From Candidatus Omnitrophota bacterium (GTDB taxonomy: Bacteria; Omnitrophota; Gorgyraeia; 2-02-FULL-51-18): 37,865 nucleotides of DNA. Below are positions 1 through 1,150 of this stretch, piece after piece. How positions within the stretch are numbered: the first letter of the stretch is position 1; every line of letters starts with the position of its first letter. The stretch is from assembly GCA_016206805.1 (NCBI GenBank), contig JACQQX010000038.1:1-37865 (forward strand), written 5' to 3'. A program made the translations under genes and the position numbers. The notes under the pieces were generated by a model that had not been told where the DNA came from, searched no databases, and saw nothing but the letters and a program-made list of their open reading frames with translations.

Positions 1-1150
1 AATAACGACTTGATTCCTCGGCTTCGCTCGGAATGACTAAGGGTCCAGGTTCCTGTTGAGTCACACAATGAATGGAACCCAGCCCATGCACCAGCGCCGC
101 GCATTCGATGCCGATGACTTTGCGGGATGGAAATACTTTTTGGATAATGTTGAGCGCTGTCCTGTCGTTTTTGTGGCTGTAGGTGGGCACAAGAACAACG
201 CCGTTGGCGATGTAAAAATTGGCATAACTGGCTGGCAGGCGGACCCTGTCATTGCGAGGAGGTCGCCGCGGCGACCGACGAAGCAATCTCGGCGCTGAGA
301 TTGCTTCGACCGCTTGCGGCGGTCTCGCAATGGCAATCCCTGGCATCGGTAATTCGATCACGCGAAGTCGTTTTCCGTCCTGATCTGTCTCCTTTTTCAA
401 AATTTCAAGATTTTCCCGGAGAATGGCATGATTTTTATCCCGCTTATCATTTTCAGCGACCGTTAGAATGGTTCTCGGCCCCACAAATCGCGCGATGTCA
501 TCCACATGGCCGTCCGTGTCGTCGCCCTCTATCCCCTCTTTGAGCCAAATGGTTTTTGTGACGCCGAGGTATTTTTTGAGATAACCCTCGATCTGTTTTT
601 TGGAAAGATGAGAGTTACGGTTAGAATTGAGCAGGCATTGCTCGGTGGTGAGGCAGGTGCCAAGGCCATTCATGTCAATCGATCCGCCCTCAAGCACAAT
701 GCCCGGGTCAACGCGCTCATAACTTTTCAGCGCCTTGATCCTATCCACAACACCATTGTCCCGCGCGAGGTCTGTATACTTCCCTCCCCAAGCATTAAAT
801 ATCCACTTTGTCAGAACGGGGTCAGACCCCTGTGGATAACTTCGAGTTATCCACAGGGGTCTGACCCCGCAAACGAAGATCGGGCCGTAATCCCGGATCC
901 AGGTGTCTACTGTTTTGACTTTATGAAAAATTAGGTTTTGGGCGCGGGCGGCGCGAGGGAGACAGGCGCGGATTTTTGAGGCGGCTTTTTTGTCATTCAC
1001 CAGCAGATTGACCCGTTCCCCCGGCAAAAGCGCGCGGATCATTTCCAGATACGTTCGCTCAACCTTCCTTAATAGAGAACCGGGCCAGGTGGTTTTATTG
1101 GTCGGCCAGGTCAGCCAAGTAGCCGCGTGCGGCTCCCATTCGGCGGGCAT
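1..1150 (-). CDS. aguA: Agmatine deiminase, 3' end beyond the window, carrying in-frame palindromic repeat insertions
   Basis: Hand translation from ATG at 1150: MPAEWEPHAATWLTWPTNKTTWPG...VDTWIRDYGPIFVC...WIFNAWGGKYTD...VLEGGSIDMNG...EGDDTDGHVDDIARFV...RLPASYANFYIANGVVLVP...HGLGSIHCVTQQ; no stop down to position 1. Catalytic motifs present. Next to aguB. Confidence 0.93.
   Translation of the reverse strand, partial: MPAEWEPHAATWLTWPTNKTTWPGSLLRKVERTYLEMIRALLPGERVNLLVNDKKAASKIRACLPRAARAQNLIFHKVKTVDTWIRDYGPIFVCGVRPLWITRSYPQGSDPVLTKWIFNAWGGKYTDLARDNGVVDRIKALKSYERVDPGIVLEGGSIDMNGLGTCLTTEQCLLNSNRNSHLSKKQIEGYLKKYLGVTKTIWLKEGIEGDDTDGHVDDIARFVGPRTILTVAENDKRDKNHAILRENLEILKKETDQDGKRLRVIELPMPGIAIARPPQAVEAISAPRLLRRSPRRPPRNDRVRLPASYANFYIANGVVLVPTYSHKNDRTALNIIQKVFPSRKVIGIECAALVHGLGSIHCVTQQEPGPLVIPSEAEESSRY
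245..338. repeat. Palindromic repeat of the TCATTGCGAG...GAAGCAATC type, inside aguA
   Basis: cattgcgagg...gaagcaatctc-ggcgct-gagattgcttc...ctcgcaatg; arms are complementary. Confidence 0.85.
818..868. repeat. Perfect 24-bp inverted repeat with 3-nt loop, inside aguA
   Basis: GGGGTCAGACCCCTGTGGATAACT-TCG-AGTTATCCACAGGGGTCTGACCCC, exactly 51 nt (17 codons). Confidence 0.97.

What the first reader, a model, noticed from the sequence alone, without database searches (positions are those of the whole stretch)
818..868. A perfect 51-bp palindrome sits in frame inside aguA, adding 17 residues
The inverted repeat begins exactly on a codon boundary of the minus-strand aguA frame and is exactly 17 codons: GVRPLWITRSYPQGSDP. 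It falls between RDYGPIFVC and VLTKWIFNAWGGKY, where the family normally has a short beta-turn linker, and it adds no stop and no frameshift. This parallels Rickettsia palindromic elements that insert in frame into protein genes, but the GGGGTCAGACCCC-type repeat is different and is usually intergenic.
Basis: partly seen in the sequence, partly recalled or inferred. Interest (0 to 1): 0.8.

Follow-up and report, generated by a model that had tools for sequence, protein, structure and literature searches.

The report
In-frame REPIN inside agmatine deiminase gene
A tiny hairpin-shaped mobile DNA element has landed in reading frame in a floppy surface loop of a metabolic enzyme gene, one of at least six such in-gene copies in this uncultured Omnitrophota genome, and related bacteria carry different mobile repeats in the very same loops.

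Summary
Window 817-869 is a 25-bp perfect inverted repeat with a 3-nt centre. Its 51-bp core (818-868) is exactly 17 codons (GVRPLWITRSYPQGSDP) in frame in aguA. It is one of 8 complete copies, plus 2 cut by contig ends, in this Omnitrophota MAG. Six of the eight lie inside ORFs, including core genes pyrD and mnmA.

Each copy is an inverted pair of a 23-nt REP (GGGGTCAGACCCCTGTGGATAAC) around a 5-nt variable centre, i.e. a REPIN. In two Betaproteobacteria almost the same REP brackets the only detected RAYT transposase gene and forms dozens of REPINs. Four RAYTs of this Omnitrophota family are bracketed by related GGGGTC-type repeats. No cognate RAYT is assembled in this genome.

In-frame intragenic REP dimers and Rickettsia palindromic elements are already known, so this is a new member of a known kind. 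Two features go further. The same aguA loop changed length repeatedly in Omnitrophota, often through unrelated palindromes. And the sister genus G006 carries its own RAYT-linked palindrome at the same sites in aguA, mnmA and a ChaN-like gene, although dS exceeds 1: recent overwriting or repeated invasion of the same sites.

The parts
818..868 (-). 51-bp REPIN-like element: inverted pair of GGGGTCAGACCCC-TGTGGATAAC around a 5-nt variable centre; encodes GVRPLWITRSYPQGSDP in aguA loop 1
818..840 (+). REP copy 1 (13-bp core GGGGTCAGACCCC 818-830 plus arm TGTGGATAAC 831-840, which contains the DnaA-box-like TTATCCACA on the other strand)
846..868 (-). REP copy 2, inverted
2..1162 (-). aguA, agmatine deiminase (PF04371, E 8e-121); likely start near 1150 (MPAEWEPH); 3' end truncated by the contig edge; residues conserved across homologues intact
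239..340 (-). aguA loop 2 enlarged in frame by a second palindromic repeat family (GTCATTGCGAG...CTCGCAATGGC), 34 residues against a mode of 14
   Evidence: model pLDDT below 50 at residues 283-305
12..37 (-). GTCATTCCGAG...GGAATC repeat read by the aguA frame downstream of the conserved C terminus HCVTQQEP; inverted copy at 3983-4008

Best explanation
The 51-bp palindrome is a REPIN: a non-autonomous element made of two inverted REP sequences, spread as a single-stranded hairpin by a REP-associated tyrosine transposase (RAYT). It inserted into a flexible beta-hairpin loop of aguA. It is retained because its length (51 = 3 x 17) and one of its three frames are open, so the enzyme gains a disordered surface loop but keeps its core and catalytic residues. 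Purifying selection removes copies in closed frames or rigid sites, which leaves in-frame copies in loops. SHOWN: multicopy family, inverted-REP anatomy, in-frame genic copies, empty sites in relatives, bracketing of RAYT genes by the same REP (Betaproteobacteria) or related GGGGTC-type repeats (same Omnitrophota family), loop placement. INFERRED: mobilisation by a RAYT in this genome, near-neutral effect on AguA, purifying selection on frame.
For: 8 full 51-bp copies with near-invariant arms and a variable centre, plus 2 at contig ends. 6 of 8 are spanned by ORFs with at least 50 codons on each side: 5 in the only open frame, and the sixth (mnmA) in another frame whose TAA has become CAA. Host genes include pyrD, mnmA and a MbnB/DUF692 gene. 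Relatives' mnmA loop is 14-16 residues in 14 genomes against 27 here. aguA loop is 13 residues in G004 and G010. The model puts the loop between strands 95-98 and 115-118 with pLDDT about 49 while most of the core exceeds 90. Betaproteobacteria SG8_39 and ALJrbin.28: about 40 distinct REPINs with GGGGTCAGACCCCTGTGGAT...ATCCACAGGGGTCTGACCCC ends, and the single Y1_Tnp gene detected in each is bracketed by that REP with at most one or two substitutions. Same-family RAYTs bracketed by GGGGTCAGACCCC in G005, G009, G012 and by GGCCTCCGACCCC in G006 form one group (92/89 support). dN/dS between G000 and G006 is about 0.10 for both aguA and mnmA.
Against: None of the 4 RAYT genes found in this assembly is bracketed by this REP; C10 and C49 are linked to a different repeat, GGGGTCAAATC. 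The genome is 87.6% complete, and contigs C22 and C57 break inside the element with the same centre, so a cognate RAYT may be unassembled. The exact REP is near-absent elsewhere in the phylum (2 of 386 genomes). dS is near saturation, so dN/dS is rough and mostly predates the insertion. No expression or enzyme data exist.
Confidence: 0.82

Rival explanations
1. The insertion sites are old and shared with the sister genus, and the resident element is overwritten in each lineage by that genome's own REPIN (gene conversion or RAYT-templated replacement), so the sequence is young but the site is ancestral. (A refinement of the best explanation rather than its opposite.)
For: G006, sister in the AguA tree (95*), carries its own palindrome (GGTCGGAGGGGTCAGAGGCCTCCGACC type, linked to its RAYT at C19) at the same sites in aguA, mnmA and a ChaN-like gene; the 66-bp element next to alr is also shared. 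14 other mnmA genes lack any insertion. dS is 1.3-1.8 but G000 copies are nearly identical.
Against: Reading frame and exact borders differ at two of the three genic sites, and the aguA loop is a general insertion hot spot, so repeated independent insertion fits too. pyrD is filled only in G000.
Confidence: 0.4
2. The hairpin is a functional RNA device (attenuator, pause or stability element) selected inside aguA, rather than a tolerated insertion.
For: Very stable predicted RNA hairpin (-54 kcal/mol).
Against: Copies occur in unrelated genes and positions, both orientations fold alike, relatives lack it or carry other sequences, and no Rfam family matches.
Confidence: 0.07
3. The 17-residue peptide is a selected functional loop, for example for substrate access or oligomerisation.
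For: The insert follows the conserved RDYGP motif, and in pyrD the element lies next to the conserved SCPN motif.
Against: Loop content is unrelated between homologues and ranges from 10 to 53 residues; the model is disordered.
Confidence: 0.06
4. Assembly artefact.
For: MAG with 73 contigs and no reads available; two contigs end in the element.
Against: Eight copies with different centres and unique flanks, six of them within intact ORFs; independent genomes show the same REP and similar insertions.
Confidence: 0.02

Closest known systems
REPINs / RAYTs (Bertels & Rainey 2011, PMC3116915)
   Same: Inverted doublet of REPs with conserved ends and a variable centre that folds into one hairpin; REP identical or nearly so to sequences bracketing RAYT genes in Betaproteobacteria
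   Different: Described REPINs are analysed in extragenic space; here most complete copies are genic and in frame, the centre is only 5 nt, the core is GGGGTCAGACCCC, and no cognate RAYT is assembled in this genome
Intragenic GTAG/CGTC REPs and REP dimers (PMC3733652)
   Same: REP dimers inside ORFs, at similar sites in some homologues (Xanthomonas recB); REP ends supply stop codons
   Different: No GTAG or CGTC tag at the ends; GGGGTC is not mentioned in that paper; phylum Omnitrophota; several unrelated repeat families at one loop
Rickettsia palindromic elements (Ogata 2000 and 2002, as reviewed in PMC2229807 and PMC10969869)
   Same: Palindromes translated in frame inside conserved proteins; an RPE-bearing guanylate kinase was active
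   Different: RPEs are 105-146 bp (review) with different sequence; here 51 bp with RAYT-type REPs

Membership tests
REPIN | Two REP sequences in inverted orientation forming one hairpin | tested here: met
REPIN | Dispersed multicopy, conserved ends, less conserved centre | tested here: met
   8 full copies in G000; 45 distinct pairs in named genomes
REPIN | Same REP brackets a RAYT (Y1 HUH transposase) gene in some genome | tested here: met
   Betaproteobacteria SG8_39 and ALJrbin.28; related repeats in G005, G006, G009, G012
REPIN | Cognate RAYT in the same genome | tested here: inconclusive
   4 Y1_Tnp genes in G000, none bracketed by this REP; assembly 87.6% complete and broken at the element
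REPIN | Mobilised by RAYT cleavage | not testable with these tools
   needs biochemistry
GTAG/CGTC REP superfamilies | GTAG or CGTC tetranucleotide at one end | tested here: not met
   element ends are GGGG...CCCC in all copies
Rickettsia palindromic element (RPE) | Palindrome inserted in frame in protein genes | tested here: met
Rickettsia palindromic element (RPE) | 105-146 bp size | tested here: not met
   51 bp; size from PMC2229807
Rickettsia palindromic element (RPE) | RPE family sequence | not tested
   no RPE sequences were compared

The most novel reading that the evidence does not exclude
Certain protein loops (aguA loop 1, the mnmA loop, a ChaN-like site) are long-lived docking sites whose resident REPIN is repeatedly overwritten by the REPIN family currently active in each genome, so orthologous core enzymes in sister genera carry different, genome-specific mobile peptide tags at the same position (concerted evolution of translated REPINs).
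Probability: 0.33. Interest if true: 0.75.

Novelty: new member of a known kind. Interest (0 to 1): 0.52.

Why it matters
It extends in-frame palindromic insertion from Rickettsia and a few cultured bacteria to uncultured Omnitrophota and ties it there to RAYT-linked REPs. The Omnitrophota aguA loop is a natural replicate experiment: 46 of 92 homologues have an enlarged loop 1, with at least 24 parsimony changes. It can test how mobile DNA supplies protein length variation and whether shared sites with different elements reflect overwriting. It also warns that such loops can mislead annotation and structure work on MAG proteins.

Tried and rejected
Chance palindrome: rejected. Known RNA family: none at 818-868. 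DnaA-box idea (arm contains TTATCCACA; the C10 RAYT has a Bac_DnaA_C domain): not supported as a pair, since C10 is bracketed by GGGGTCAAATC, and the Betaproteobacterial RAYT proteins that carry the TGTGGATAA REP are short (215 aa) and were not scanned for that domain; left open. C42 core match: it encodes RGSDPD in a RarA-like gene and lacks a partner, so it is probably native sequence, a judgement from memory of that family. Exact 51-bp pattern with symmetric arms in genome contigs: none, so a 20-mer was used. Literature: no held paper contains GGGGTCAGACCCC, and none found on Omnitrophota palindromes looked relevant from its title and abstract. The 2002 Rickettsia paper is not held, so RPE facts come from reviews.

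Full report
OBSERVATION. The window is contig C23 of an Omnitrophota MAG (G000, 1.39 Mb, 73 contigs, 87.6% complete; the phylum is inferred from its close relatives). At 817-869 there is a 25-bp perfect inverted repeat with a 3-nt centre. The part 818-868 is 17 whole codons of the minus-strand aguA frame, GVRPLWITRSYPQGSDP, between IFVC and VLTKW. It folds far better than shuffled sequence. aguA is a clear agmatine deiminase (PF04371, E 8e-121; nearest solved relative 1xkn). The invariant residues of 42 homologues, including D91, H219 and C366, are present.

A FAMILY, NOT A ONE-OFF. The 13-bp core GGGGTCAGACCCC occurs 23 times in G000 and its reversed control never. Eight full copies are exactly 51 bp, with the plan GGGGTCAGACCCC-TGTGGATAAC-NNNNN-GTTATCCACA-GGGGTCTGACCCC. 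Two more are cut by contig ends, and two 66-bp pairs have the cores in reversed order. Among the eight, all 13-bp cores are identical and substitutions concentrate in the centre. Six of the eight lie inside ORFs with at least 50 codons on each side: aguA, pyrD (PF01180), mnmA (PF03054), a MbnB/DUF692-DUF2063 ORF and two ChaN-like paralogues (ChaN-like is my own naming; Pfam gave no such hit). Five use the one frame that has no stop. The mnmA copy is in another frame, whose TAA has become CAA. At the 3' end of a ferredoxin gene (C29) the element supplies the stop. That pattern is what selection against closed frames would leave.

EMPTY SITES AND PLACEMENT. In relatives the aguA loop has a mode of 13 residues (IFV..TK) against 25 here. 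The mnmA loop has 14-16 residues in 14 relatives against 27 here. The net gain of 11-12 residues is less than 17, so a few host codons were replaced or the starting loop was shorter. The AlphaFold2 model (mean pLDDT 82, 42-sequence alignment) places the aguA insert between strands 95-98 and 115-118 with pLDDT about 49, while most of the core exceeds 90. The second insert (residues 283-305) is also below 50.

WHAT MOVES IT. The arrangement, two inverted REPs with a variable centre, is that of a REPIN (PMC3116915). Betaproteobacteria SG8_39 and ALJrbin.28 hold most of the 45 distinct doublets found with GGGGTCAGACCCCTGTGGAT...ATCCACAGGGGTCTGACCCC ends, with longer centres; one Marinobacter copy is exactly 51 bp. 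In each of those two Betaproteobacterial genomes the single Y1_Tnp gene detected is bracketed by that REP with at most one or two substitutions. Some doublets there also lie inside ORFs: 11 of 40 are spanned. In G000's own family, RAYT genes in G005, G009 and G012 are bracketed by GGGGTCAGACCCC and that of G006 by GGCCTCCGACCCC, and these four group together. G000's own RAYTs are of other types, and two of them are bracketed by GGGGTCAAATC repeats. A cognate RAYT is therefore not demonstrated in G000. Incompleteness, and contig breaks within the element at C22 and C57, may hide it.

A RECURRENT TARGET. Among 92 AguA homologues from the search (Omnitrophota where named), 46 have loop 1 of 18 or more residues; the range is 10 to 53. 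Parsimony needs 24 changes between long and short on a tree built without the loops; well-supported branches alone force 8. Counts cannot tell gain from loss. Several inserts look like translated dispersed repeats. P0100 carries the same peptide (SFGKLRMVSEVESQSLRRDCFA) in both loop 1 and loop 2. P0041 and P0061 are 92% identical yet have loops of 14 and 51. At the DNA level, eight family-f1 aguA genes could be read. Palindromes or repeat-like DNA fill loop 1 in G000, G006, G011 and G002; short direct repeats fill it in G005 and G007; G004 and G010 are short.

SHARED SITES, DIFFERENT ELEMENTS. G006 is the sister of G000 in the AguA tree (95*) and its best match for PyrD and MnmA. Its own palindrome sits at the same place as the G000 REPIN in aguA, mnmA and a ChaN-like gene, and a 66-bp element near alr is also shared. 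The G006 repeat is absent from G000, and the G000 REP is nearly absent from G006 (one copy). With dS 1.3-1.8 between the genera, G000 copies this similar to each other are unlikely to be unchanged ancestral sequence. Either ancestral insertions were overwritten in each lineage, or the same loops were hit independently. mnmA, where no other relative has an insert, favours shared ancestry. Differing frames and borders in aguA and the ChaN-like gene favour re-insertion. I leave this open.

COMPARISON. REP dimers inside genes, some at the same site in homologues, were described for GTAG/CGTC REPs (PMC3733652), and in-frame palindromes for Rickettsia (reviews PMC2229807 and PMC10969869; an RPE-bearing guanylate kinase was active). 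The element is thus a new member of a known kind, with an untagged GGGGTC core, in another phylum. The repeated invasion of one loop and the shared-site pattern are the parts worth pursuing. The effect on AguA activity is untested.

Noticed in passing
window 239-340: Second in-frame palindromic repeat (GTCATTGCGAG...CTCGCAATGGC) in aguA loop 2, next to RLPASYANF; modelled as disordered.
   Followed up: partly
window 12-37, 1158-1226, 3576-3641, 3983-4008, 6229-6310: GTCATTCCGAG...GAGGAATC and CCTGCCTGCCGGCAGGCAGG repeats scattered in the first 6.3 kb; they extend the 3' end of aguA and the apparent N terminus of the ORF at 2425-3642.
   Followed up: partly
L097-L100 (G000 C10, C49, C41, C43): Four Y1_Tnp genes in this genome; C10 carries a C-terminal Bac_DnaA_C domain (E 3e-8) and is followed by several tandem GGGGTCAAATC repeats.
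   Followed up: partly
window 831-839 / 847-855: The REP arm contains a perfect DnaA-box-like 9-mer (TTATCCACA) in both halves, kept in Betaproteobacterial copies; reason unknown.
   Followed up: partly
G000 C22 start (L102) and C57 end (L101): Both contigs break inside the element with the same centre (ATAGG/CCTAT) in the same orientation, suggesting a longer collapsed repeat beyond the element.
   Followed up: no
L241, L245 (pyrD of G012, G003): The pyrD loop after SCPNVSY is also length-variable in relatives; G003 has a CCTGCCTGTCCGGCAGGCAGG palindrome there.
   Followed up: partly
L010, L012 (G000 C31, C41) and L114 (G006 C24): 66-bp elements with the cores in reversed order; the copy next to alr is at the same place in G000 and G006 while the interior differs.
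   Followed up: partly
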